Source of the DNA: Pedobacter lusitanus
GTDB taxonomy: Bacteria > Bacteroidota > Bacteroidia > Sphingobacteriales > Sphingobacteriaceae
NCBI RefSeq assembly: GCF_040026395.1
Contig: NZ_CP157278.1
Location: 5,270,001 to 5,334,000 of the forward strand
DNA: 64,000 nucleotides
Direction of reading: 5' to 3'
Both the position numbers and the translations under genes were made by a program. Below, one piece after another: positions 4,852-22,682 of this stretch (positions within the stretch are counted from its first letter, which is position 1; each line of letters begins with the position of its first letter). Under the pieces are notes generated by a model. It saw only the letters and a program-made list of their open reading frames with translations. It had not been told where the DNA came from and did not search any database.

Positions 4852-7800
4852 ATGCTTAATCTGATTATTAGCTATTCTATAAAGAATAAGCTGATTATTG
4901 GTCTGTTTGTACTCGCGCTGATTGGCTGGGGTACTTATGAGGTCACAAAATTACCTATAGATGCACTTCCTGATATTACGGATAACCAGGTGCAGATTAT
5001 TACTGTTTCGCCTTCCCTGGGAGCACCTGATATCGAAAGACTGATTACTTTTCCGGTTGAACAGGCTTGTAGCAGTATTTCCGGACTGAAGCAGATCAGA
5101 AGTTTTTCTCGTTTCGGACTTTCTCTGGTCACTATTGTTTTTGATGAAGAAACAGATGTATACTGGGCGCGGCAGCAGATCAGTGAAAAATTACAACAGG
5201 TACAGCAGGAGATTCCTGCAGGTGCCGGTTCGCCCCAGATGGCTCCGGTTTCTACCGGTCTGGGAGAGATATATCAATACGTGGTCAGGCCGGTTAAGGG
5301 ATATGAATCTCAGTATGATGCTACCGAATTAAGAACTATTCAGGACTGGATTGTACGGCGGCAGCTTTTAGGTACACCAGGAGTGGCCGAAGTTTCCAGC
5401 TTTGGAGGTAAACTCAAGCAATATGAAATAGCCGTTCGTCAGGATCAGTTAAAAGCTTATGGAATTACTATTGCTGACGTATTTGATGCCTTAGAGAGAA
5501 ATAATGAAAACACTGGAGGTGCTTATATAGAGAAAGGACCTACGGTTTTATACATCAGAAGTGAAGGATTAACCACTACGCCCGAAGATATTCAGCAGAT
5601 TGTAGTTAAAACGCTGGCTAATGGAATGCCGTTATTAATGAAAGATGTAGCTACCGTTCAGTATGGCGCTGCAATCCGATACGGAGCTATGACTTATAAC
5701 GATAAAGGTGAAGTAGCCGGAGCAGTAGTCATGATGTTGAAAGGCGAAAACTCATCAGTTGTAGTTAAAAGAGTTAAAGACAGAATCGCCGAAATACAAA
5801 AAATGATGCCTAAGGGAGTAGTCATTGAACCCTTTCTGGATCGTACCAAGATGGTAGATAATGCCATACACACTGTTGAAGTCAATTTAATGGAAGGTGC
5901 ACTGATTGTTATATTTGTACTGGTGTTTTTTCTGGGCAATCTCAGGGCCGGACTTATTGTATCCTCAGTCATTCCGCTTTCCATGTTATTCGCAATCATT
6001 CTGATGAATAAATTTGGTGTTGGTGGAAATCTGATGTCACTTGGCGCAATAGATTTTGGACTTATCGTTGATGGATCTGTAATTGTTGTAGAAGCCATAT
6101 TGCACCGGTTTGCACATTCTAAACAATTTAGAAAAGCCGGGCAGATCAGTCAGCAGGAGATGGATAATGAAGTGGGTAAATCGACTGGTTCAATGATTAA
6201 ATCCGCTGTTTTCAGCCAGATTATTATTCTAATTGTTTACCTGCCAATTTTATCTCTGGAAGGTATTGAAGGAAAAATGTTCAAGCCCATGGCTTTCACT
6301 ATTGCTTTCGCTATCCTTGGAGCCTTTATTTTATCAGTTACTTATGTTCCGATGATGTCGGCCTTATGTCTGAGCAGAAATCTGAAGCATAAAAAAAATA
6401 TCACAGATAAACTGATGGCCTGGCTGGAAAGAAGATATCAGCCTTTACTTGGTAAAATACTACGTTTCCCAAAAACTATTATACTGATCACTCTGTCCCT
6501 ATTTATCAGCTCTGTATTTATACTGACCAGAATGGGTGGAGAGTTTATACCTCAGCTTGAAGAAGGTGACTTTGCTGTAGAAACCAGGTTGCTGACCGGG
6601 AGTAATCTGAATAATACGATAGAAACGACGCAAAAAGCTTCGAAAATTCTTTTAAATGAATTCCCGGAAGTACAAAAGATTGTTACGAAAATAGGCAGTG
6701 CCGAAGTCCCTACAGATCCTATGCCTTTTGAAGCAGGAGATATGATGGTAATCCTTAAAGCTAAAAAAGACTGGACTTCAGCTAAATCATTTCCCGAATT
6801 AAGTGCGAAAATGACTAAGGCACTGGAAGTTGTTCCGGGGATCACCGTAGGTTTCCAATTTCCCGTTCAGATGCGTTTTAACGAACTGATGACTGGAGCA
6901 AGACAAGATGTAGTCTGTAAGATTTTTGGAGAAGATCTGGACTCTCTTGCCAGTTATGCGCATCGTTTAGCGGGTATTATTCAGACCGTAAAAGGTGCAG
7001 TTAATATTTATGAAGAGAAAGTAAATGGTATGCCTCAGGTAGTTGTCCGGTACAACAGAGAAGGCATGGCTAAATATGGCTTAAACGTAAGTGATGTAAA
7101 CCGTGTGGTTAACACTGCTTTTGCAGGTCAGGTTGCAGGTCAGGTTTATGAAGGAGAGAAGAGGTTTGACATGGTTGTCAGATTAGACGGGGAATCACGT
7201 AAAAACATTTTTGATATCCGTAATCTTATGATCCCGGCTAAAACTGGTGGTCAGATACCTTTATCACTTGTCGCATCGGTTGAAGAAGTAGAAGGTGTAA
7301 ACCAGATTCAGCGGGAAGATACGAAGCGCAGGATTATTATCGGGTTTAACATCAAAGACAGAGATGTGCAAACCATAGTTGAAGAGTTACAGCAGAAAGC
7401 CGGACGTGAGCTTCATTTGAATAAAGGATATACCATACAATACGGTGGTTCTTTCGAAAATATGACTGCTGCAAAATCAAGATTAAGCATAGTTGTGCCA
7501 ATTGCGCTTTTACTGATTTTCCTGCTGCTGTATTTTGCCTTTGGTTCAGTTAAACAGGGACTGCTGATTTATACCGCAATTCCATTATCAGCAATCGGTG
7601 GAATTCTTGCTTTATGGGCACGTGATCTGCCTTTTAGTATTTCTGCCGGTGTAGGTTTTATCGCTTTATTTGGTGTCGCTGTTTTAAATGGAATACTATT
7701 GGTTACTGAATTCAACAGGCTGAAAAAAGAAGGCTGGACTGATGTGAAGCGTATTGTGATACACGCCACGAAATCTAAACTCCGTGCTGTTTTAATGACT

Positions 7801-9219
7801 GCACTTGTTCCTTCTCTTGGATTTATCCCAATGGCAATCAGTACAGGCGCAGGTGGTGCCGTGCAAAAACCTCTTGCCACAGTAGTCATTGGTGGTTTAA
7901 TCGTTTCCACTTTATTAACCCTATTTGTTTTGCCCATGCTTTACCTGCTTTTTGAAAAAGGATTTGGCTACTTCAAGCCACAAAAAAGAATAGCGACTGT
8001 GATGTTATTCCTGCTTTTTGCCGGTCTGCAATCAGCAATTGCTCAGCAAAAAATACATTTGCCAGCGGCGATAGACAGCGCGCTGAAAAACAACAATGCG
8101 CTGAGAGTTTCGATGATTCAAACCGATTATTATCGTGAATTAAAGAAAAGCAGTTTTGACGTACAGAAAGCCAATGCAGGATTTGAATTCGGACAGTTTA
8201 ACAGCCTGAAAAATGATAACAGGTTTTCTATTTCCCAGAGTATAGATTTTCCAGGTGTTTATATCCATCAGTCAGCTATTCATAAAACCAATATTCAGCT
8301 TAGTGAAACCAATCTTTTGCAGCATCAGCTGGAGTTGAAAACAAGAGTGAAATCTGGTTATTACAGTTTATTGGTGATGGAAAACAAACGTAAATTATTG
8401 TTGCAGGCAGATAGTATTTACAGTGCTTTTCTGGAAAAGGCTGAACAAAGATTCAATTCAGGCGATGTAGATGCACTCGAGCTGGCAACAGCGAGAAACC
8501 AGCGCTTACAGATTTCCAATCAGCTTGAAGCACTCCAGACCGATTACGAAGTTTTATTGAACCGTTTTAATGTGCTGCTGAATGCTCAGCATCAGATGTG
8601 GCCTGAAAACGATAATGTATTATATAAACTTTCTGTCCTGCCAGATGCTGATCAAACGGCTGATAATCCATTGTTAAAATTACAACAGCAGCAATTACAG
8701 TTATCAAAGCAGCAGTATAAGCTGGAAAAAAGTAAACTTTTGCCATCTTTAAATTTGGGTTACAGTAACACGAGTATTGTTGGTTGGCAGACCCTGAGTT
8801 CAGGTTCAGAGATCTATTTTGATAAAGGAAAGCGGTTCTCTTCAGTAAATGCGGGTCTTGGCATTCCTGTTTTTTTTGGTGCCCAGCGCTCTAAAATAAA
8901 AGCCTCTAATGTGCTGATTAGGCAAAAAGAACAGGAGCTTGCTACCTCAAGACAGGATCTCAGTACTGCATTGGCAGACGCTTTGAAAGTTTATGCACGA
9001 AACAGTAAGCTGATCAGCTCTTATCAGGACAAGATTTTACCAAATGCCTCAAAGATTATTACAATCACTACAGATAAATTGAATGCCGGAGAAATAGGCT
9101 ATCTCGATTGGGTAATTCTAATCAATCAGTCTATCCAGATCCGCAGTGAATATTTCAATACCGTGCAGCAATTGAATGAAGCTGCTTTTGAAATAGAAAA
9201 AATAAGTGCCGTTAACTAA
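4852..9219 (+). CDS. cusA/czcA-like: CusA/CzcA-type RND heavy-metal efflux pump fused to a TolC-type outer membrane factor
   Basis: 1455 residues. Residues 1-1040 form a complete heavy-metal RND transporter: first membrane helix with KLPIDALPDITDNQVQI, the transmembrane proton-relay region GAIDFGLIVDGSVIVVE (D401 and D407), and the second half with GGSFENM and the last helices ending FVLPMLYLLFEKG. A signal-peptide-like stretch follows (KKRIATVMLFLLFAGLQSAIAQQ, 1045-1067, possible signal peptidase site after A1065), then a TolC-like factor (1066-1455) with coiled-coil segments such as LEKAEQRFNSGDVDALELA. RND pumps normally encode the outer membrane factor separately; fused versions occur in Bacteroidota. 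Exported metal (Cu/Ag versus Co/Zn/Cd) cannot be decided. A 17-bp apparent overlap with the adaptor disappears if that gene starts at 9236. Confidence 0.92.
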   Translation: MLNLIISYSIKNKLIIGLFVLALIGWGTYEVTKLPIDALPDITDNQVQIITVSPSLGAPDIERLITFPVEQACSSISGLKQIRSFSRFGLSLVTIVFDEETDVYWARQQISEKLQQVQQEIPAGAGSPQMAPVSTGLGEIYQYVVRPVKGYESQYDATELRTIQDWIVRRQLLGTPGVAEVSSFGGKLKQYEIAVRQDQLKAYGITIADVFDALERNNENTGGAYIEKGPTVLYIRSEGLTTTPEDIQQIVVKTLANGMPLLMKDVATVQYGAAIRYGAMTYNDKGEVAGAVVMMLKGENSSVVVKRVKDRIAEIQKMMPKGVVIEPFLDRTKMVDNAIHTVEVNLMEGALIVIFVLVFFLGNLRAGLIVSSVIPLSMLFAIILMNKFGVGGNLMSLGAIDFGLIVDGSVIVVEAILHRFAHSKQFRKAGQISQQEMDNEVGKSTGSMIKSAVFSQIIILIVYLPILSLEGIEGKMFKPMAFTIAFAILGAFILSVTYVPMMSALCLSRNLKHKKNITDKLMAWLERRYQPLLGKILRFPKTIILITLSLFISSVFILTRMGGEFIPQLEEGDFAVETRLLTGSNLNNTIETTQKASKILLNEFPEVQKIVTKIGSAEVPTDPMPFEAGDMMVILKAKKDWTSAKSFPELSAKMTKALEVVPGITVGFQFPVQMRFNELMTGARQDVVCKIFGEDLDSLASYAHRLAGIIQTVKGAVNIYEEKVNGMPQVVVRYNREGMAKYGLNVSDVNRVVNTAFAGQVAGQVYEGEKRFDMVVRLDGESRKNIFDIRNLMIPAKTGGQIPLSLVASVEEVEGVNQIQREDTKRRIIIGFNIKDRDVQTIVEELQQKAGRELHLNKGYTIQYGGSFENMTAAKSRLSIVVPIALLLIFLLLYFAFGSVKQGLLIYTAIPLSAIGGILALWARDLPFSISAGVGFIALFGVAVLNGILLVTEFNRLKKEGWTDVKRIVIHATKSKLRAVLMTALVPSLGFIPMAISTGAGGAVQKPLATVVIGGLIVSTLLTLFVLPMLYLLFEKGFGYFKPQKRIATVMLFLLFAGLQSAIAQQKIHLPAAIDSALKNNNALRVSMIQTDYYRELKKSSFDVQKANAGFEFGQFNSLKNDNRFSISQSIDFPGVYIHQSAIHKTNIQLSETNLLQHQLELKTRVKSGYYSLLVMENKRKLLLQADSIYSAFLEKAEQRFNSGDVDALELATARNQRLQISNQLEALQTDYEVLLNRFNVLLNAQHQMWPENDNVLYKLSVLPDADQTADNPLLKLQQQQLQLSKQQYKLEKSKLLPSLNLGYSNTSIVGWQTLSSGSEIYFDKGKRFSSVNAGLGIPVFFGAQRSKIKASNVLIRQKEQELATSRQDLSTALADALKVYARNSKLISSYQDKILPNASKIITITTDKLNAGEIGYLDWVILINQSIQIRSEYFNTVQQLNEAAFEIEKISAVN

Positions 9220-14469: not shown

Positions 14470-14569
14470 TTATATCTGCAAATTAAGTAAATAAGTCTTC
14501 TTTGCTGTTCAGAAATCTCCGCAGTATTTTTTCTGTAAGTCACTGAATTGTTTGTGGGCCTTATAAATA

Positions 14570-14603
14570 AAATAACCTCTGGATATATATCCAGAGGTTA
14601 TTT
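14570..14603 (-). terminator. Terminator of the cytolysin-like operon
   Basis: A perfect 34-bp palindrome (AAATAACCTCTGGATAT and its complement) that folds into a hairpin with a small TATA-type loop, followed on the minus strand by TATTTA. It lies 48 bp after the stop of the last gene of the operon. Confidence 0.72.
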
Positions 14604-14651
14604 CGGAGTATGATCTTTTTATTATCCTTTCTTTATAATTTTCTGTATTAT

Positions 14652-15716
14652 TTATAGTTCAAATTCGGTTTCAAACATTCCATTTGTCAAAGCATATGCA
14701 GCTCCAAATGAAATAGGCACGCCATATACTTCAGTAGTATAGATTCCACCATTCACGATAAAGTTTTGAAACTCATCAAATCCCTTAACCGTACGAACAG
14801 CTGCTTGTCCATCCCCTCCGATAATACATATAGAGATTTCAGCCTGTGATAAGATTTTTTTAGTATTTGCATCAACCGATATTTGTCCACCAACAATTCC
14901 GGCATTGAATGCGGCACGAACTGCTACAGACAATTCGCTGTAATTTTCACTTGACTCTACCAAAATAATTCCTTTACGACCATAGTTTACAGTGTTTACA
15001 TAAACAGGATCTTTTGCAAGGAAACTTTGTCTTGTAGGCTCATCTTTAAAAATATTACCATCATCAGGAATATCCATAGAGACATTGAAATAGATCTGGC
15101 TAAAATCGGCAACAAGTGCTGAAGTTCTCTGGATTTTACCACTTGCTACCGAAGCACTGATTGAAAATACTGAAGCAATATTTACATTGGCCCCAAAAGC
15201 CAGTTTGGCCTCTTTATAAGCATTGATCTGTTTCATCTTATAGGTGAAAACCTGAGATTGTCTTCCGCTAAAGTTTTTATCTCCAATAGCGTCAAGAACT
15301 GCATTACCTAAACCAGATTTGGTTGGAGCGATATCTCTGGAGCGTACAGGTAATGAAAATGATGCAGTAACAGTACGCTTTAATGCATTTGAGAATGCTA
15401 CTGGCTCATATAAACCAGTGTTTATTGATTTAGCAGTAAGCACAGAACCTAAATAGATGAAATTTGGAGCCAGTGTAGCAATCTCGTAAAATTTTTCAAC
15501 GTTGTTCGTACGGACACCTGAGTTGTTTTGAGAAGGTGTAATGTCAATCTCTTTACCATCTTTAATGGTGTAAATTTTATCCCATTGACCTTTTCGTTGT
15601 TGAGTAGGGTTTTGCTGAGCGGTGCCATTTTCCAGTTTTGGGCTGTTCAGATTTTCTTTACTGCATGAATAAAAGAGAACAGGCACTGCGAAAAGTAGTT
15701 TAAAAAACTGTTTCAT
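14652..15716 (-). CDS. Thiol-activated-cytolysin/CDC-like lipoprotein, short form
   Basis: 354 residues, lipoprotein signal MKQFFKLLFAVPVLFYSC with lipidated Cys18 and acidic residues soon after. Membership of the cholesterol-dependent cytolysin superfamily is read from several motifs: DFSQIYFNVSMDIP (204-217) matches the second membrane-hairpin segment, YVNTVNYGR (239-247) the conserved Y-x-S-V-x-YGR strand, and IIGGDG (298-303) with YGVPISFGAAYALTNG (331-346) the end of the pore-forming core. It stops where the core ends, with no domain 4 and no Trp-rich undecapeptide, so it is the short type of the two-component CDC-like toxins known from Bacteroidota. It is the last gene of the operon, 18 bp after the long gene. 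Confidence 0.82.
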   Translation of the reverse strand: MKQFFKLLFAVPVLFYSCSKENLNSPKLENGTAQQNPTQQRKGQWDKIYTIKDGKEIDITPSQNNSGVRTNNVEKFYEIATLAPNFIYLGSVLTAKSINTGLYEPVAFSNALKRTVTASFSLPVRSRDIAPTKSGLGNAVLDAIGDKNFSGRQSQVFTYKMKQINAYKEAKLAFGANVNIASVFSISASVASGKIQRTSALVADFSQIYFNVSMDIPDDGNIFKDEPTRQSFLAKDPVYVNTVNYGRKGIILVESSENYSELSVAVRAAFNAGIVGGQISVDANTKKILSQAEISICIIGGDGQAAVRTVKGFDEFQNFIVNGGIYTTEVYGVPISFGAAYALTNGMFETEFEL

Positions 15717-15734
15717 AAGATTTTGTTTATTAGT

Positions 15735-17312
15735 TTAATTAATTAGAATATAAAAAGGATTTGATCTCAGGTAGTAATTCATTCGATACTCGTAGGCACT
15801 CCACATTCGACGGGGTTCACGTGGATTAGAAGGTGCTGGTCCATCGCTTTCATAAGATGAATGCTCGCGTCCAATACTTATTCTATTGGTAAGATTTATA
15901 TTTCTTAACTTAAGAGTCTCATTATTTGGTTTGCAATCCACCAGGATTTTAGGCCAGTTTTTTGCATCAGTTTTGTATGTGCAACTTTCTTCGCTCTTTT
16001 CAACTTCAAAAACAATATCGGTGTACGGTTGAGCGGCTCTTGTTTTTTCCCTGTCTTTGTAAAAATTCAAATAAAGGTCTGCATAGCTGATAAAGTTGTT
16101 GCTGGAAACATCGGGCTGGTAAACACTGTTTTCTTTACTCAATTGAACATATAAGGGTTCTATCTGGGTAATGTTTTCGAACTCTGTCTCCACCAGCTGA
16201 TGGGTATTTGCATCTGCAAAAGAGCAGGCAATAGGAACACCATAGCTTGTCTCGGTAAATTTTGAATTATAAATCAGGTTCAGAAAATGTGAATAGCCTT
16301 TGAAAGTTTGTACGCTATAATCGCTATCTCCTCCAAGAATCAGCACTTTAAACTGTGTTTCTTCAAAGAATTTTTTCTCTTCTGTAGTCAGCACCTCTGT
16401 CTTGTTGTAGAAAATGCGATCGAACTCTTTTTTGATACAGGATTCGGCAAACTGATATTCCTTATCCGTCTCGATGACGATCATCCCCATACGTCCGTAA
16501 GTGACAGAATTTACGTAAACCGGAGGCATGCCTGGTGTACCCTGAATAGGCTTATCAGCGATCGGTGCGATGTCCATATTGACTGTAAAGCTGGCTTGAA
16601 AGAATTTTACATATAGTCCTGTGGATTGCAATATTTTATGTGACTCTGAAGTGCTGGTTTCACTTTTTGAGGAGAATAATTTCCGGGTATTGATGTCTGT
16701 TCCGAAGGCCTGTTTTATCTCGTCATAAAAGGTGAAACGCTTATACTGGAACATGAATTTATCAGTCTGCTGGAAACTGCCGCCTTTAGCCATCTCCTTC
16801 ACATAGTCATCCAATTTGGAATAGGAAGGATTTTCGATGACACGGCTGGTAGGTTTTGGGGTACTATGCGTCAATGACATTGACACGGTGATTGGTTTTC
16901 TGGTTGGCAGAAAAATTGGAAGATAATTTTGTTTGGAAATACTGTTTCCATCCAGGACTGCACCCGGAAATATATAGTTTTTACCCTGATACAAAAGGGC
17001 TTCTGTACTTTTTACCAGATGTTTTTTTGAAAAAAAGGCCTCATCTTCCGGAGTCATGCCGTTCGTAATAGTTGTTTTGCCTGGTTTTGCCACCTGATTA
17101 TTATGGCCTCCCGGACGGCTGAAATAGTCGAGAGCCATGGATTTGTACAAGGAATCTCCATAATAGGCGTATGATGAATCAATCTTGATTCGATACGGTG
17201 TACGTCCGGTTTTTAATAACGCTTCATTGCTGGCATTTGCTGGCGGGTTCTCTTTTCTGCAGGAATAAAGTAGAACAGGTACTATGAAGAGTAACTTAAA
17301 GAGCTGTTTCAT
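15735..17312 (-). CDS. CDC-like lipoprotein, long form, copy 1
   Basis: 525 residues; lipoprotein signal MKQLFKLLFIVPVLLYSC with Cys18. The core has the cytolysin marks FFQASFTVNMDIAP (237-250), YVNSVTYGRMGMIVIE (266-281), LILGGDSDY (324-332) and SYGVPIACSF (356-365). Residues about 381-525 are an extra C-terminal domain rich in beta-type segments (YADLYLNFYKD, YTDIVFEVEKSEESC, RISIGREHSSY) without the cholesterol-binding undecapeptide. This fits the long subunit of a two-component CDC-like pore, where the extra domain would bind the target surface; that role is inferred. The middle of the gene is almost identical in DNA to the next gene upstream. Its signal peptide and spacer resemble those of the short gene. 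Confidence 0.82.
   Translation of the reverse strand: MKQLFKLLFIVPVLLYSCRKENPPANASNEALLKTGRTPYRIKIDSSYAYYGDSLYKSMALDYFSRPGGHNNQVAKPGKTTITNGMTPEDEAFFSKKHLVKSTEALLYQGKNYIFPGAVLDGNSISKQNYLPIFLPTRKPITVSMSLTHSTPKPTSRVIENPSYSKLDDYVKEMAKGGSFQQTDKFMFQYKRFTFYDEIKQAFGTDINTRKLFSSKSETSTSESHKILQSTGLYVKFFQASFTVNMDIAPIADKPIQGTPGMPPVYVNSVTYGRMGMIVIETDKEYQFAESCIKKEFDRIFYNKTEVLTTEEKKFFEETQFKVLILGGDSDYSVQTFKGYSHFLNLIYNSKFTETSYGVPIACSFADANTHQLVETEFENITQIEPLYVQLSKENSVYQPDVSSNNFISYADLYLNFYKDREKTRAAQPYTDIVFEVEKSEESCTYKTDAKNWPKILVDCKPNNETLKLRNINLTNRISIGREHSSYESDGPAPSNPREPRRMWSAYEYRMNYYLRSNPFYILIN
16335..17055. repeat. Near-identical tract shared by the tandem long genes, copy 1
   Basis: Roughly 720 bp that match 17931-18651 (offset 1596 bp) with only scattered substitutions by eye, while the flanking parts of the same genes (15735-16300 and 17060-17140) differ clearly. 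This sharp change in identity suggests recent gene conversion or recombination between the copies. Boundaries are approximate. Confidence 0.8.
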
Positions 17313-17330
17313 AAGATCTTGTTTATTGAT

Positions 17331-18911
17331 TTAATCAAGTAAAATATAGAATGGATTTGGTCTCAGGTAGTAGTTCAATCTATGCTCATAAGCATTCCAC
17401 GCTCGTTCGAGTTCGAGTGGGTTAGAGGGTTCCGGTCCATCACTTTGATAAGATGAATACTCAGTTCCAATACTCAATCTGTTCGTAATATTGATATTCC
17501 TTAGTTTAAGAGTTTCGTTTTTTGTATCGCAGTCCACTAAAATCTCAGGCCAGTTTTGATAATTGGGCTTATACGTACAATTATCTTCATTCTTTTCAAC
17601 TTCGAAAATAATATCAGTATAAGGCTGAGCAGCTCTGGTTCTCTCCCGGTCTTTGTAAAAATTCAAATAAAGGTTTGCAGAGCTTCTATAGTTATTGCTA
17701 TTGTATTCGGGTTGATAAACACTGTTTTCCCTACTTAATCTGACGTATAAAGGTTCTATATAACTGATGTTTTCAAATTCTGTCTCTACAAGCTGATGGG
17801 TATTCGCATCTGCAAAAGAGCAGGCAATAGGAATACCGTAACTTGTCTCTGTAAATTTGGAATTGTAAATCAGGTTCAAAAAGTGTGAATAGCCTTTGAA
17901 GGTTTGTACGGTATAGTCACTGTCTCCTCCAAGAATCAGTACTTTAAACTGTGTTTCTTCAAAGAATTTTTTCTCTTCTGTAGTCAGCACCTCTGTCTTG
18001 TTGTAGAAAATGCGATCGAACTCTTTTTTGATACAGGATTCGGCAAACTGATATTCTTTATCCGTCTCGATGACGATCATCCCCATACGTCCGTAAGTGA
18101 CAGAATTTACGTAAACCGGAGGCATGCCTGGTGTACCCTGAATAGGCTTATCAGCGATCGGTGCGATGTCCATATTGACTGTAAAGCTGGCTTGAAAGAA
18201 TTTTACATATAGTCCTGTGGATTGCAGTATTTTATGTGACTCTGAAGTGCTGGTTTCACTTTTTGAGGAGAATAATTTCCGGGTATTGATGTCCGTTCCG
18301 AAGGCCTGTTTTATCTCATCATAAAAGGTGAAACGCTTATACTGGAACATGAATTTATCAGTCTGCTGGAAACTGCCGCCTTTAGCCATCTCCTTTACAT
18401 AGTCATCCAATTTGGAATAGGAAGGATTTTCGATGACACGGCTGGTAGGTTTTGGGGTACTATGCGTCAATGACATTGACACGGTGATTGGTTTTCTGGT
18501 TGGCAGAAAAATTGGAAGATAATTTTGTTTGGAAATACTGTTTCCATCCAGGACTGCACCCGGAAATATATAGTTTTTACCCTGATACAAAAGGGCTTCT
18601 GTACTTTTTACCAGATGTTTTTTTGAAAAAAAGGCCTCATCTTCCGGAGTCATACCGTTCGTTATAGTTTTCTTGCCTGATTTTGCCGCCTGATTATTAT
18701 GACTTGCGGAGCGACTAAAATAGTCGAAGGCCATAGATTTGTACAAGGAGTCTCCATAATAGGCGTATGATGAATCAATCTTGATTCGATACGGTGTACG
18801 TCCGGTTTTTAATAGCGCTTCATTGCTGGTATTTGATGGCAGGTTTTCTTTTCTGCAGGAAACCGTTATCAATAACAAAAGGAGGGCAAATGATTTAAAT
18901 AAGTTTTTCAT
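17331..18911 (-). CDS. CDC-like lipoprotein, long form, copy 2
   Basis: 526 residues; lipoprotein signal MKNLFKSFALLLLLITVSC with Cys19, clearly different from copy 1. From about residue 29 the two proteins run in parallel and are nearly identical through the pore-forming core up to about residue 380. Core motifs are the same (VNMDIAP, YVNSVTYGR, LGGDSDY, then SYGIPIACSF). The C-terminal domain (about 382-526) is related but diverged, for instance EKNEDNCTYKPNYQNWPEIL against EKSEESCTYKTDAKNWPKIL. It is likely a second long subunit with the same pore module and altered recognition surface. It lies 18 bp upstream of copy 1 and 16 bp downstream of the 292-residue family member. Confidence 0.82.
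   Translation of the reverse strand: MKNLFKSFALLLLLITVSCRKENLPSNTSNEALLKTGRTPYRIKIDSSYAYYGDSLYKSMAFDYFSRSASHNNQAAKSGKKTITNGMTPEDEAFFSKKHLVKSTEALLYQGKNYIFPGAVLDGNSISKQNYLPIFLPTRKPITVSMSLTHSTPKPTSRVIENPSYSKLDDYVKEMAKGGSFQQTDKFMFQYKRFTFYDEIKQAFGTDINTRKLFSSKSETSTSESHKILQSTGLYVKFFQASFTVNMDIAPIADKPIQGTPGMPPVYVNSVTYGRMGMIVIETDKEYQFAESCIKKEFDRIFYNKTEVLTTEEKKFFEETQFKVLILGGDSDYTVQTFKGYSHFLNLIYNSKFTETSYGIPIACSFADANTHQLVETEFENISYIEPLYVRLSRENSVYQPEYNSNNYRSSANLYLNFYKDRERTRAAQPYTDIIFEVEKNEDNCTYKPNYQNWPEILVDCDTKNETLKLRNINITNRLSIGTEYSSYQSDGPEPSNPLELERAWNAYEHRLNYYLRPNPFYILLD
17931..18651. repeat. Near-identical tract shared by the tandem long genes, copy 2
   Basis: Partner of the tract at 16335-17055. It covers the region encoding the membrane-inserting core of the cytolysin-like proteins. 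Confidence 0.8.
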
Positions 18912-18927
18912 AGTTACAAAGGGAGAC

Positions 18928-19806
18928 TTAATATTTATTGTTAAATATTTGATGGTTTTTTAGATAAGATGATCCAAAAGATATAGGCTGGCCGTAATTA
19001 GCTGTAGTGATTTCAGCTTCTACATATTCCATCGCTTGCTGAACAGGTTGTTTACTCTCTAAATCAATGGAGTTATTCCCTAATAGGAGAACCCTGTAAA
19101 TACAATTGGCCAGAATACTTTTGTCACGATCTGAGAGACTTTCTCTCTTCAGAATCTTTGCTAAAGCAGATTTAACTTCTGATACGCCAATATTTGATTC
19201 TACAATAATAATAGCTCTTCTTCCAAATGAAAGTGTGCTGGTGTAAATGATGTCATCAGGATTGTATTTTGCGAGTAGGCCATCATTTGTCCTGAACGTC
19301 CCTGTTTCAGGTAGTTCCATGTCAACAGTGAATGCGACGCGTTCTAAATTGATGGCCAGTAGGGTCATTGGTTTTAAGGATGGGTCCGGAACAGAAAACC
19401 AGGTTTTAGGATCGATTGTCTGGCCAAAAAAAAGCTCCATATCTTTGTAAGAACCCAATTCTTTTACTGCAAATGAAAAGCTTTTGTTTTGCCATTTTGC
19501 CAGGTTTGTAGCACTTATGGCTGCATCTATAGCTTTATATAGCGGTTCTTTCTGTGCTTTTATAGTTTTGCTTTTTGCATTCAGAGAATTAAAGTTTATC
19601 ACGATGTCGTCTTGAATAATATCCAGAACCTCATGTTGGTTGTTGTTTATGGTCCTTTGCTCCATTGCAGCGCCTAAATACAATATCTCCGGTGATTTCG
19701 CTGTAATAACAGAAGCCTGCTGCTGTTGTGCAGCTGCTTCGGAAAAAAACACGAACAGAGTTGCGCACAGAGATAATAAGATGATTTTTACTTTTTGGGA
19801 TCTCAT
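18928..19806 (-). CDS. Thiol-activated-cytolysin-like protein, short secreted form
   Basis: 292 residues. Unlike its neighbours it has an ordinary signal peptide (KVKIILLSLCATLFVFFSEAAAQ, cleavage likely after AAA or AQ) and no lipobox cysteine. Cytolysin motifs are NLERVAFTVDMELP (about 153-166), YTSTLSFGRRAIIIVES (about 190-206) and NYGQPISFGSSYLKN (about 270-284). The ending NHQIFNNKY closes the core without any domain 4. It is more diverged from the other three than they are from each other. A second short pore subunit released into the periplasm or medium, or a regulator of assembly, are both possible. The gene is 9 bp from the first gene of the operon. Confidence 0.72.
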   Translation of the reverse strand: MRSQKVKIILLSLCATLFVFFSEAAAQQQQASVITAKSPEILYLGAAMEQRTINNNQHEVLDIIQDDIVINFNSLNAKSKTIKAQKEPLYKAIDAAISATNLAKWQNKSFSFAVKELGSYKDMELFFGQTIDPKTWFSVPDPSLKPMTLLAINLERVAFTVDMELPETGTFRTNDGLLAKYNPDDIIYTSTLSFGRRAIIIVESNIGVSEVKSALAKILKRESLSDRDKSILANCIYRVLLLGNNSIDLESKQPVQQAMEYVEAEITTANYGQPISFGSSYLKNHQIFNNKY

Positions 19807-19815
19807 GGCCGGTAT

Positions 19816-20379
19816 TTATTTATAAAATGATTCTACATTTAACCAGATCAGTGTTGATTTGCCCGCATCCTTATTCATGATCTTTTCATAAGATTTTAGG
19901 TTGTATTGCTGACCTAAAATCAGACTTCCGGAAGATACAGGGGTACTTTTCTTCTTATAAAAGCTACTGTTTATCAGAAAGCCTGCCGGACCGGATTTCT
20001 CTCCCAGTAACTCCCAGTTATCACTACTGCCAGCCTGGAAGTAGAGTTTTTGTTTATCCCATCTGGATTTGAACTTTTCCATTACCCCGTACAATTTGAC
20101 CAGTGTAGTTGAATCATTTTTTACAATAATTTCCTGAGGAATAAAAAAAGAAACCCTATCGCCGAAATGTGTTTCTATTTCGGTTTCTTTCAGCATATCA
20201 GATATACCAGATGACAGCACCCTCTGGAATGTAATTATCTTTTTGGAGTTAAGCCTGACATGCAGGTTCGTTGTATTTTCAGGGACAACAGGTGGTTTGA
20301 CTACCTCGTCATTCTTTTTGCAGGAAAATGTAAAAGCTACTGTAGAAATAATACAGATTCCAATGGTTTTTATATTCAT
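19816..20379 (-). CDS. Small lipoprotein heading the cytolysin-like operon; candidate immunity factor
   Basis: 187 residues, lipoprotein signal MNIKTIGICIISTVAFTFSC with Cys20, followed by KKNDE, the kind of charged segment that can act as a surface-export signal in Bacteroidota. The rest (for instance HVRLNSKKIITFQRVL, VSFFIPQEIIVKN, WDKQKLYFQAGSSDNWELLG) belongs to no family I recognise and looks mostly beta. It is the first gene of the operon. Bacteroidota producers of two-component CDC-like toxins are known to carry a surface lipoprotein that blocks pore formation on themselves; position and type make this gene the best candidate for that role, but sequence alone does not prove it. Confidence 0.6.
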   Translation of the reverse strand: MNIKTIGICIISTVAFTFSCKKNDEVVKPPVVPENTTNLHVRLNSKKIITFQRVLSSGISDMLKETEIETHFGDRVSFFIPQEIIVKNDSTTLVKLYGVMEKFKSRWDKQKLYFQAGSSDNWELLGEKSGPAGFLINSSFYKKKSTPVSSGSLILGQQYNLKSYEKIMNKDAGKSTLIWLNVESFYK

Positions 20380-20794: not shown

Positions 20795-21784
20795 TTATTG
20801 TCGCGATACGAAAGAAGTTTTTGTCGCATAACCGCTTTCTTTCAGGAATATTTCAGGAGCCTTCTCCATCTGAATGATATCTGCAATTGCCTTTTGTTTG
20901 TTTTTGGATTGCTGGTAGTAGGCTTCACAGATCTTATAGCCAATTATGTAACCAAGGTCGGGAAGACGATCTTCATATTGATCAGACATAAACCATTTAT
21001 CCTGGTTATTAGTTTTTATATCTTCCAGAAACTCCCGCCACAAAGATGCTTCGTGCGCTGTAAGATAATCGTAAGTTGATTGTTTGATAGCAGTTCTGTT
21101 TAAAACAAGGCGGGTAATAAATTCTGCAGAACCTTCCAGTAAACTTCTTTTTAGCAGGGTGCTTTTACCATTGTCATTTAGCTGCATAGTATGCACGTTT
21201 TCATGTACAACAAGAGCTGGCAGTAAATCCGGAGAAGCAAACATATTTCTTTGTTTCGGGCTGAAGGCACTCAGATCAGCGTGTTTGTCGTTACTTAACA
21301 TTTCCGTGCCTATAATGAATCCACCTTCTACAGGTGTTCCGCCATGCTTTAAAGGAGAGATTAAAAAGTAAATATCACTGAAAGTAGCGGTAGGATAAAG
21401 TCTTTTTAACTTTCTATAGGCATTACGAATTGTATGTTCATGTTTTCGGAATGATAGCGTAGTATTTCGGATCGAATTTAAATATTTTGGTAATAGTCTG
21501 ATGCAGTCCACGTAATCTTCAGCATGCAAATCGTCTTTTGCATTCAATCCTTTTAGTCCAGTGGTAGCTTTATCTATATAATACTTTTGGATAAAGCTAA
21601 TCTGACGTAATGAATCAGAAGTAGTCATACAGGAATCAAAGGCAGTCCAATAGTTGTGAAGATCTGTCTGACTAATGATGATACTATCAGGAGAAGAACG
21701 TTTCCAGTAGACTTTGCCGGATTGAGCATTTGCAGACAAGCATGCTGCCAGTAAGAGAAAAGAAATGAATTTCAATCGTAGCAT
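20795..21784 (-). CDS. Exported DUF2268-type putative zinc protease
   Basis: 329 residues starting at the ATG at 21784, which gives a clean signal peptide (MLRLKFISFLLLAACLSANAQ). The longer frame to 21910 is non-protein-like and would cross the promoter of the divergent AraC gene. The metallopeptidase motif VVHENVHTMQL contains HExxH-type residues (HENVH), and the downstream LLEGSAEFI supplies a Glu typical of the family. FSDIYFLISPLKHGGTP is another family segment. Likely a periplasmic or lipid-anchored hydrolase of unknown substrate. It is not obviously linked to the cytolysin-like operon, being separated by 415 bp, but is on the same strand. Confidence 0.75.
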   Translation of the reverse strand: MLRLKFISFLLLAACLSANAQSGKVYWKRSSPDSIIISQTDLHNYWTAFDSCMTTSDSLRQISFIQKYYIDKATTGLKGLNAKDDLHAEDYVDCIRLLPKYLNSIRNTTLSFRKHEHTIRNAYRKLKRLYPTATFSDIYFLISPLKHGGTPVEGGFIIGTEMLSNDKHADLSAFSPKQRNMFASPDLLPALVVHENVHTMQLNDNGKSTLLKRSLLEGSAEFITRLVLNRTAIKQSTYDYLTAHEASLWREFLEDIKTNNQDKWFMSDQYEDRLPDLGYIIGYKICEAYYQQSKNKQKAIADIIQMEKAPEIFLKESGYATKTSFVSRQ

Positions 21785-21849
21785 AAAAAGAGGATGGTTT
21801 TGCTTATTGTTAATTCTTAAGTGCCAGTACTTCACAAATCTAAATATAT

Positions 21850-21857
21850 TATCTTTG
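21850..21857 (+). promoter_or_regulatory. -7 promoter box (TATCTTTG) of the AraC gene
   Basis: Exact TAnnTTTG match. The ATG at 21864 begins 6 bases after it, so the transcript would be leaderless or have a very short leader. No TTG at the -33 position. Confidence 0.5.
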
Positions 21858-21863
21858 TATAAG

Positions 21864-22682
21864 ATGCTGCACCAAGAATTTGAACCTCCAGAAGAGCTGC
21901 GTGATACCATAAAATGCTTTTGGTATAACAGAAGAGACTTTGGAAAGATCCAGTCTGATTTTGAGGTAATACCTGACGGTTACGCTGAAATTATATTTCA
22001 TTTCGGAAGTGGTTGTAGTATTTCTTCCCCTGAAGGCTTGCAGCCATTGCCGTCACCATTTATAATGGGACTCCTGAATCAGCCTGTTATTATAAGCGCA
22101 AAAAACTGTTTGGAAATCATTAGTATCAGGTGTTTTCCATGGACTATATTTGATCTGCTCGGATTGCCGTCAGGCAAAGGTGGAGTACACATATTTGAAC
22201 ATCCTATTGCTCAGCTTCAGTCGACGCTGGATAAATTGGTTCATGCTGGCAGGATAGGTGAAGCACTGGATCAGGTAAAACAATATTTTCTGAATGCCAG
22301 GTCGCAGGTGGCGATGGACAGTATGCTATTTAAAGCGGGAGTTGCAATGACGAAGGCAAATGGCAATATGCCGGTAAGCCAGGTAGCTGAAGCGGCACAT
22401 GCCACAATTCGTACGCTGGAAAGGAAGTTCAGACAGTCTTCTGGTTATACAGTCAAAGACGTGTCGGGTCTGATGCGTTTTGAACAGGTAAGAAACCAGT
22501 TATGGCTTAATCCGGACGTTAATATTGCCGGTCTGGCGCATGACTTTGGTTATACAGATCAATCACATCTGAGCAGAGAATTCAAGCGTTACAGCGGTAC
22601 TACGCCGGCAGCATTTGCGAGAAAAGCTAAGAAAAGGAAACAGGTTGTAATCAACGATTTTGTCGTGTTTATACAATCCTGA
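21864..22682 (+). CDS. AraC family transcriptional regulator with DUF6597-type N-terminus
   Basis: 272 residues from the ATG at 21864. The N-terminal half (PPEELRDTIKCFWYNRRDFGK, VIPDGYAEIIFHFG) is the sensing domain seen in a large set of Bacteroidota AraC regulators. The C-terminal half is the double helix-turn-helix: VSQVAEAAHATIRTLERKFR and IAGLAHDFGYTDQSHLSREF, then YSGTTPAAFARK. The start is chosen because the upstream in-frame extension to 21765 passes through the -7 box. It is immediately upstream of the FAD monooxygenase gene (42 bp) and probably controls it. Confidence 0.88.
   Translation: MLHQEFEPPEELRDTIKCFWYNRRDFGKIQSDFEVIPDGYAEIIFHFGSGCSISSPEGLQPLPSPFIMGLLNQPVIISAKNCLEIISIRCFPWTIFDLLGLPSGKGGVHIFEHPIAQLQSTLDKLVHAGRIGEALDQVKQYFLNARSQVAMDSMLFKAGVAMTKANGNMPVSQVAEAAHATIRTLERKFRQSSGYTVKDVSGLMRFEQVRNQLWLNPDVNIAGLAHDFGYTDQSHLSREFKRYSGTTPAAFARKAKKRKQVVINDFVVFIQS

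What the first reader, a model, noticed from the sequence alone, without database searches (positions are those of the whole stretch)
14652..20379. Five-gene operon of CDC-like (thiol-activated cytolysin family) lipoproteins: likely pore-forming antagonism system
Four adjacent proteins share cytolysin-superfamily core motifs: a membrane-hairpin-like segment followed by YVNTVNYGR/YVNSVTYGR/YTSTLSFGR, then GGDG/GGDS and YGVPISF or equivalents. Two lack domain 4 (short type) and two have an extra C-terminal domain (long type); none has the cholesterol-binding undecapeptide. This matches the two-component CDC-like toxins known from Bacteroidota, which act on neighbouring bacteria. Four family members in one operon, two of them long forms in tandem, is more elaborate than one short plus one long.
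Basis: partly seen in the sequence, partly recalled or inferred. Interest (0 to 1): 0.92.

Follow-up and report, generated by a model that had tools for sequence, protein, structure and literature searches.

The report
Pore-toxin operon with odd extra subunit
A bacterium of the phylum Bacteroidota carries a compact operon that looks like a known type of bacteria-killing pore toxin, but with two targeting subunits instead of one and an extra toxin-like protein whose membrane hairpins look too short to join the pore, which may protect the producer rather than kill.

Summary
14652-20379 (minus strand) is a tight five-gene operon with four thiol-cytolysin (PF01289) relatives. S1 and the long proteins La and Lb are close to the solved two-component CDC-like (CDCL) toxin of Elizabethkingia, so the antibacterial reading is well supported by homology. 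It needs one correction: the other short protein, S2, does not look like an ordinary pore subunit. In six of six clade members it lacks a lipobox and the activation loop, and its two membrane-hairpin segments are short. The fifth gene, X, is an unnamed lipoprotein family. X and S2 also occur as a pair without S1 and L, and both diverge faster. I read the operon as a toxin (S1 with La or Lb) preceded by an X-S2 module that more likely protects the producer than forms pores; that part is unproven. La and Lb are an old duplication with a recently homogenised core and diverged ends; two other tandem pairs have a similar layout. CDCL pairs, triplets and an immunity lipoprotein are published; I found no account of the X-S2 pair in what I read. 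No activity was tested.

The parts
19816..20379 (-). X: 187-aa predicted lipoprotein (C20, CKKNDE from the lipobox cysteine), first gene; candidate immunity lipoprotein of an unnamed family
   Evidence: No Pfam/NCBIfam match; relatives next to CDCL genes in L012, L052, L085, L130, L131, L133 and, before an S2 start at a contig end, L134; no CDCL gene seen near it in L135, L190, L191
18928..19806 (-). S2: 292-aa CDC-fold protein with signal peptide but no lipobox, no activation loop, shortened hairpin segments
   Evidence: PF01289 1.4e-5, just under cut-off; 8g32 1.5e-14; model and fold match; segment lengths; S2 clade 100/100
17331..18911 (-). Lb: 526-aa long CDCL lipoprotein with its own C-terminal domain (D4)
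   Evidence: PF01289 5.3e-15; 8g33 3.2e-59, 6xd4 3.9e-59
15735..17312 (-). La: 525-aa long CDCL lipoprotein; paralogue of Lb, core near-identical, D4 and N-terminus diverged
   Evidence: PF01289 4.4e-15; La/Lb segment comparison
14652..15716 (-). S1: 354-aa short CDCL lipoprotein, predicted pore stave
   Evidence: PF01289 1.7e-21; 8g32 1.4e-62; 61-64% identical to the Bacteroides congonensis homologue, by method
14569..14604 (-). 16-bp hairpin followed by a T-rich stretch after S1, likely transcription terminator
   Evidence: MFE -23.9 kcal/mol for 112 nt, z -4.60, 0 of 200 shuffles as low; not listed by the consensus scan

Best explanation
The operon encodes a two-component CDC-like antibacterial pore toxin plus a protective module. 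La and Lb are alternative membrane or receptor adaptors. After a protease removes the N-terminal loop, either one can seed a ring of many S1 subunits, whose hairpins make the barrel (inferred from the Elizabethkingia and B. fragilis systems). X and S2 are not staves of that barrel. X is a surface lipoprotein in the place where the known immunity lipoprotein BcdI stands. S2 is a CDC-fold relative that lacks the loop which keeps S subunits from assembling and has shorter hairpin segments. The likeliest job for S2 is to bind activated or prematurely activated S1/L and stop productive assembly, i.e. a decoy or cap for the producer. Shown here: family membership, anatomy, gene order, La/Lb pattern, X-S2 linkage and occurrence without S1/L. 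Inferred: killing, receptor binding, activation, and protection by X or S2.
For: Homology of S1/La/Lb to solved CDCL_S and CDCL_L. S2 fold. Hairpin segments: S2 31-32 and 43-48 residues in 6 of 6, against 35/38 and 49/51 in 31 of 33 S- or L-type proteins from CDCL loci. Proline in these segments in 5 of 6 S2 and 0 of 27 S/L. Residues before the core, signal peptide included: 31-45 in S2, 66-128 in those 33. X-S2 without S1/L: G433; G504 (X plus an S2 start at a contig end, and a complete S2 on another contig); G723 lacks most of L and all of S1 by a 3,638-bp deletion relative to G679 and keeps intact X and S2. S-L loci without S2: L081, L132, L133, and L052, which has another short-hairpin CDCL instead. 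Identity between three full operons: X 29-31%, S2 29-45%, L 59% (one pair), S1 54-64%. Published: BcdI is a lipoprotein encoded just upstream of CDCL_S (PMC11169675), and CDCL_S cleaved in solution forms non-functional oligomers (PMC11952106).
Against: No activity was measured. S2 has a secretory signal without a lipobox, so it may stay in the periplasm, where it could hardly block a pore assembling on the outer face. The deletion in G723 is recent (flanks 98.6-99.1% identical), so retention of X-S2 there may be chance, and G723 has another S-L pair (L132). S2 is a fragment in G766, so lone S2 can decay. G433 and G504 are in many contigs and their completeness is not told, so S or L genes could be missing from the data. 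Short second segments (41-43) also occur in 9 other CDCL proteins of the 57 compared, some of them single genes, and 7 of these 9 have proline there, so they may form pores of their own. Two S-type proteins of the 33 have longer second segments (60 and 70). The beta-amphipathicity of the segments is lower in S2 than in S but not lower than in L. The lengths depend on where the alignment puts gaps. Distant X relatives covering most of the model (G960, G1196) are not next to CDCL genes.
Confidence: 0.55

Rival explanations
1. S2 is a third, specialised pore subunit (for example an initiator or closing subunit between L and S1), so the operon is a genuine three-type pore toxin; X alone is the immunity protein.
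For: S2 keeps the CDC fold and stands next to L on the same strand in all three X-S2-L-S1 loci seen (window, L012, L130). Three adjacent CDCL genes occur in 61 of 1578 CDCL-bearing genomes in PMC11169675.
Against: Hairpin segments do not match those of S and L and mostly carry proline; S-L pairs exist without S2; X-S2 exists without S or L found; published two-component pores need no third type.
Confidence: 0.22
2. S2 is a periplasmic chaperone or guard that escorts S1/La/Lb lipoproteins to the outer surface, with no role in immunity to external toxin.
For: Signal peptide without lipobox in 6 of 6 S2, by eye; S1/La/Lb are predicted lipoproteins that must cross the periplasm.
Against: S2 occurs in genomes where no S1/L was found; S-L pairs without S2 exist.
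Confidence: 0.15
3. La and Lb are simply a redundant duplication, with no difference in target.
For: Core amino acids 91-330 identical, 98.9% DNA identity.
Against: D4 and the first 25 codons are old (dS about 1.4-1.5) and D4 has dN/dS about 0.1, so both copies look kept under constraint. Two other tandem-long pairs (L014, L055) show a conserved core with variable N-terminal region and C-terminus.
Confidence: 0.2
4. The operon is not an antibacterial weapon but acts on eukaryotic cells or has a non-lytic role.
For: Family resemblance to CDCs; no target is known for this bacterium.
Against: No CDC-type C-terminal domain detected by Pfam. A B. fragilis CDCL pair inhibits related bacteria, and the native Elizabethkingia proteins did not lyse sheep erythrocytes (PMC11169675).
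Confidence: 0.08

Closest known systems
Elizabethkingia anophelis CDCL_S/CDCL_L (8g32, 8g33, 6xd4, 9ccq, 9ccp; PMC7527733, PMC11169675, PMC11952106)
   Same: S1 and La/Lb match CDCL_S and CDCL_L over the core; short has no D4, long has its own D4; N-terminal region before the core present
   Different: Two long genes, placed before S1, plus X and S2; the Elizabethkingia operon has no other co-transcribed gene (PMC11169675)
Bacteroides fragilis CDCL of MGE1 with BcdI (PMC11169675)
   Same: Lipoprotein gene at the head of the operon, short and long CDCL lipoproteins
   Different: X is not detectably similar to the lipoproteins in the equivalent place in L132 and L081 (the BcdI sequence itself was not at hand); S2 and a second long gene are additional
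Three-gene CDCL loci (pattern 1 of Phocaeicola vulgatus/dorei, PMC11169675)
   Same: Three PF01289 proteins from adjacent genes
   Different: That survey kept only proteins with a lipoprotein signal (21 non-SpII proteins removed), so S2-type proteins would have been left out; pattern 1 sequences were not compared here
Orphan immunity genes of gut Bacteroidales T6SS (PMC12247911, PMC10470768; start of abstract in a listing only)
   Same: Protective genes carried without the toxin
   Different: Other toxins; no CDC-fold protein mentioned in what I saw

Membership tests
Two-component CDCL (CDCL_S + CDCL_L) | PF01289 core in both subunits | tested here: met
   S1, La, Lb over cut-off
Two-component CDCL (CDCL_S + CDCL_L) | Adjacent short (~365 aa) and long (~500 aa) genes with lipoprotein signals | tested here: met
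   S1 354 aa, La 525, Lb 526; cysteine at 18-19, by eye, no signal-peptide program. S1 follows the long genes, unlike the published short-then-long order
Two-component CDCL (CDCL_S + CDCL_L) | YGR and GG motifs | tested here: met
   S1, La, Lb: YGR and GG present
Two-component CDCL (CDCL_S + CDCL_L) | F/Y-F/Y pair before YGR | tested here: inconclusive
   YF in S1; S-F in La/Lb at the aligned columns, as in the aligned stretch of solved CDCL_L
Two-component CDCL (CDCL_S + CDCL_L) | Proteolytic activation and pore formation on membranes | not testable with these tools
   N-terminal regions of 85-113 residues before the core in S1/La/Lb, signal peptide included; no assay possible
CDCL_S (for S2) | Lipoprotein signal (SpII) | tested here: not met
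   No lipobox in 6 of 6 S2, by eye
CDCL_S (for S2) | N-terminal activation loop | tested here: not met
   31-45 residues before the core including signal peptide, 6 of 6
CDCL_S (for S2) | Hairpin segments of the length seen in S and L proteins | tested here: not met
   31-32/43-48 in 6 of 6 against 35 or 38/49 or 51 in 31 of 33
Cholesterol-dependent cytolysin (CDC) | CDC-type D4 with cholesterol-binding motif | tested here: not met
   No C-terminal cytolysin Pfam model among matches with E<=1 for La/Lb; phmmer alignments of Lb to CDCs stop at about residue 387 of 526
BcdI immunity lipoprotein (for X) | Lipoprotein gene at the head of the CDCL operon | tested here: met
BcdI immunity lipoprotein (for X) | Sequence relation to BcdI | tested here: inconclusive
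   BcdI sequence not at hand; no relation to the 279-aa and 308-aa lipoproteins in the equivalent place (hhalign probability 9.5% and 3.8%)
BcdI immunity lipoprotein (for X) | Blocks pore formation | not testable with these tools
   No assay possible

The most novel reading that the evidence does not exclude
S2 is a pore-forming-toxin fold turned into its own antidote: a propeptide-free CDC-family protein with shortened hairpins that joins S1/L assemblies and stops them. With the lipoprotein X it forms a fast-evolving immunity pair that bacteria also keep without the toxin. Other short-hairpin CDCLs in Bacteroidota loci (Y in L054/L056, the third gene of L055, kept alone in L061) may do the same.
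Probability: 0.3. Interest if true: 0.82.

Novelty: new variant of a known kind. Interest (0 to 1): 0.58.

Why it matters
CDCLs are widespread antibacterial toxins whose self-protection, receptors and extra gene copies are poorly understood. If X and S2 protect, they would be a second type of CDCL immunity and a case of a pore-forming fold used as an inhibitor, a counterpart to the control of complement pores in animals. The La/Lb pattern (fixed core, variable N-terminal region and receptor domain, in three tandem pairs) suggests that producers vary targeting while keeping one shared pore subunit. Both ideas can be tested with ordinary gene deletions and liposome assays.

Tried and rejected
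Structure of X: AlphaFold2 on two sequences gave pLDDT 34.5, useless; not searched. Viral contigs: 147 pattern matches, none a relative of S2 by tblastn. Plasmids: one PLSDB record with a 21.8% identical thiol-activated cytolysin, Chryseobacterium rhizoplanae NZ_CP084348, not followed. Peptidase C11 family in the own genome: 0 matches at E<=0.001, while 4 of 14 control genomes had one, so no C11 activator of its own is apparent. Consensus promoter and terminator scans gave numbers near the shuffled mean (28 vs 22.1, sd 4.9; 4 vs 4.9) and were not used. A claim that short hairpins occur only in S2 was dropped: 9 other CDCL proteins of 57 have second segments of 41-43, in at least two clades; whether S2 shares an origin with some of them is not resolved. 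A claim that X is found only with CDCL genes was dropped: G537 (X 0.3 kb from a contig end), G960 and G1196 have X or distant X without one near. Retention of X-S2 in G723 was downgraded because the deletion is recent. Diversifying selection on D4 was considered and rejected: dN/dS about 0.1. The beta-moment comparison did not separate S2 from L and was not used as support. Of the 26 genomes matched by the S2 model I looked at regions in 16; G580, G608, G622, G649, G654, G688, G729, G739, G761 and G774 were not opened.
Full report
What is there. On the minus strand, in order of transcription: X 19816-20379 (187 aa), S2 18928-19806 (292 aa), Lb 17331-18911 (526 aa), La 15735-17312 (525 aa), S1 14652-15716 (354 aa), with gaps of 9, 16, 18 and 18 nt and a strong hairpin 47-82 nt behind S1. 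Four are thiol-cytolysin relatives; S1, Lb and S2, the three run against PDB, are nearest by sequence to the Elizabethkingia CDCL pair. X has no Pfam or NCBIfam match.

Genome setting. The 6.05-Mb own genome (G000) has 9 PF01289 matches, 8 over the cut-off: four here, four in a second cluster near 888-892 kb and one at 692 kb. The second cluster (L014) reads short, short, long, long, then a lipoprotein of peptidase family S41. A second, distant X copy (21% identical, E 7e-5) lies 2.5 kb from the lone long CDCL, in opposite orientation, with two unrelated genes between. Ten of 58 other relatives had a match to Lb, all at 33% identity or less, whereas S1 is 61% identical to a Bacteroides congonensis protein (S1 itself was not searched in the relatives). 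The neighbour genes S66 peptidase and DUF937-OmpA are also adjacent in G006 and G013, whose CDCL genes lie elsewhere. Horizontal arrival is likely but was not tested further.

La and Lb. Over amino acids 91-330 they are 98.9% identical in DNA with 8 silent and 0 replacement changes; in D4 (385-525) they are 76% identical with dS 1.48 and dN 0.154; the first 25 codons also have dS about 1.4. This fits an old duplication whose core was recently homogenised or exchanged. Tandem long pairs in L014 and L055, which are related to each other, show a similar layout, conserved core with a variable region around residues 41-84 and a variable C-terminus, without recent homogenisation. In published CDCLs the N-terminal region holds the activation loop and D4 the membrane- or receptor-binding part (PMC11169675 parts 1-4 of 9; PMC11952106 sections 6, 9, 11).

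X and S2 as a unit. In 399 genomes of the family of B. congonensis (G430), X had matches in 13, 8 with E below 1e-20. Three of these eight were in the model. Of the five others, four lie beside CDCL genes (G607 X-S-L; G679 X-S2-L-S1; G723 X-S2; G504 X then an S2 start at the contig end) and one shows none (G537, 0.3 kb from a contig end). With 11 of 151 genomes bearing PF01289, four of five by chance has probability about 1e-4 (X of G607 resembles that of the seed G462 closely, so not all are independent). In an order-wide sample of 393, X matched 23 genomes; besides the two seeds only G960 and G1196 covered most of the model, weakly, and neither has a CDCL gene near by my profiles; the other 19 were mostly short N-terminal matches. 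In a class-wide sample of 395 an earlier model matched 4: the own genome, G108, and two weak ones, of which G407 has no CDCL near and G253 was not looked at.

S2-clade genes: with L and S1 next door in the window, G430 and G679; without in G433, G504 and G723; a fragment in G766. In G433 and G504 neither PF01289 nor the S2 model found an S or L gene; G433 has one other divergent short-hairpin CDCL. G723 lacks 3,638 bp present in G679, leaving about 213 bp of L; X and S2 stay open with 4 and 2 base changes. Likewise, beside the same downstream genes, G023 (L055) has long-long-third and G024 (L061) only the third, 50% identical while those downstream neighbours are 79-93%; the upstream genes differ.

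Mechanism. By analogy with published CDCLs, La or Lb binds the target, a protease removes its loop, S1 is recruited, cut and polymerises into a barrel. In PMC11952106 (section 11) S subunits cut in solution form non-functional prepore-like oligomers. S2 lacks the loop from the start, so it could always meet the edge strands of activated S1/L; its hairpins would not match the barrel. X could act at the surface as BcdI does (PMC11169675). The own genome has no C11 protease match. S41 peptidase lipoproteins lie in other CDCL operons of this genus (L014, L053, L054), but not in this one.

Literature. The searches gave the CDCL papers I opened: PMC7527733 (passages), PMC11169675 (parts 1-4 of 9 and passages), PMC11952106 (outline, three sections) and PMC12853789 (passages). 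The review PMC13238964 was seen only in listings. None of what I read describes X, S2 or short-hairpin CDCLs. Supplementary tables were not readable, and PMC11169675 removed non-SpII proteins before its analysis.

Verdict. The finding is real and of a known kind; its variant features are the two long subunits with shared core and the X-S2 pair. The toxin reading of S1/La/Lb is strong by homology; the protective reading of X-S2 is the best fit but unproven.

Noticed in passing
L014 12713-14239; L053 4416-6014; L054 9122-10663: S41-family peptidase lipoprotein inside CDCL operons of this genus (last gene in L014 and L054, between short and long genes in L053); a possible self-encoded activating or processing protease.
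   Followed up: partly
L055 4481-9229 and L061 4147-5283: Tandem long CDCLs plus a short-hairpin third CDCL in G023; beside the same downstream genes G024 has only the third gene.
   Followed up: partly
L052 3727-4845: BACON domain in front of a weak CDCL-like region, next to an S-L-X locus.
   Followed up: no
L012 5447-6985: Long CDCL gene of Bacteroides congonensis interrupted by one in-frame stop; left as it is.
   Followed up: no
window 4852-9219: AcrB-type efflux pump fused to an outer-membrane efflux protein in one 1455-aa ORF.
   Followed up: no
window 20795-21910: GldB-like/DUF2268 predicted Zn-protease gene upstream of the operon on the same strand.
   Followed up: no
L082 5623-14909: Three CDCL-like proteins with several similar-looking ~300-330 aa lipoproteins in G473; possible immunity array.
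   Followed up: no
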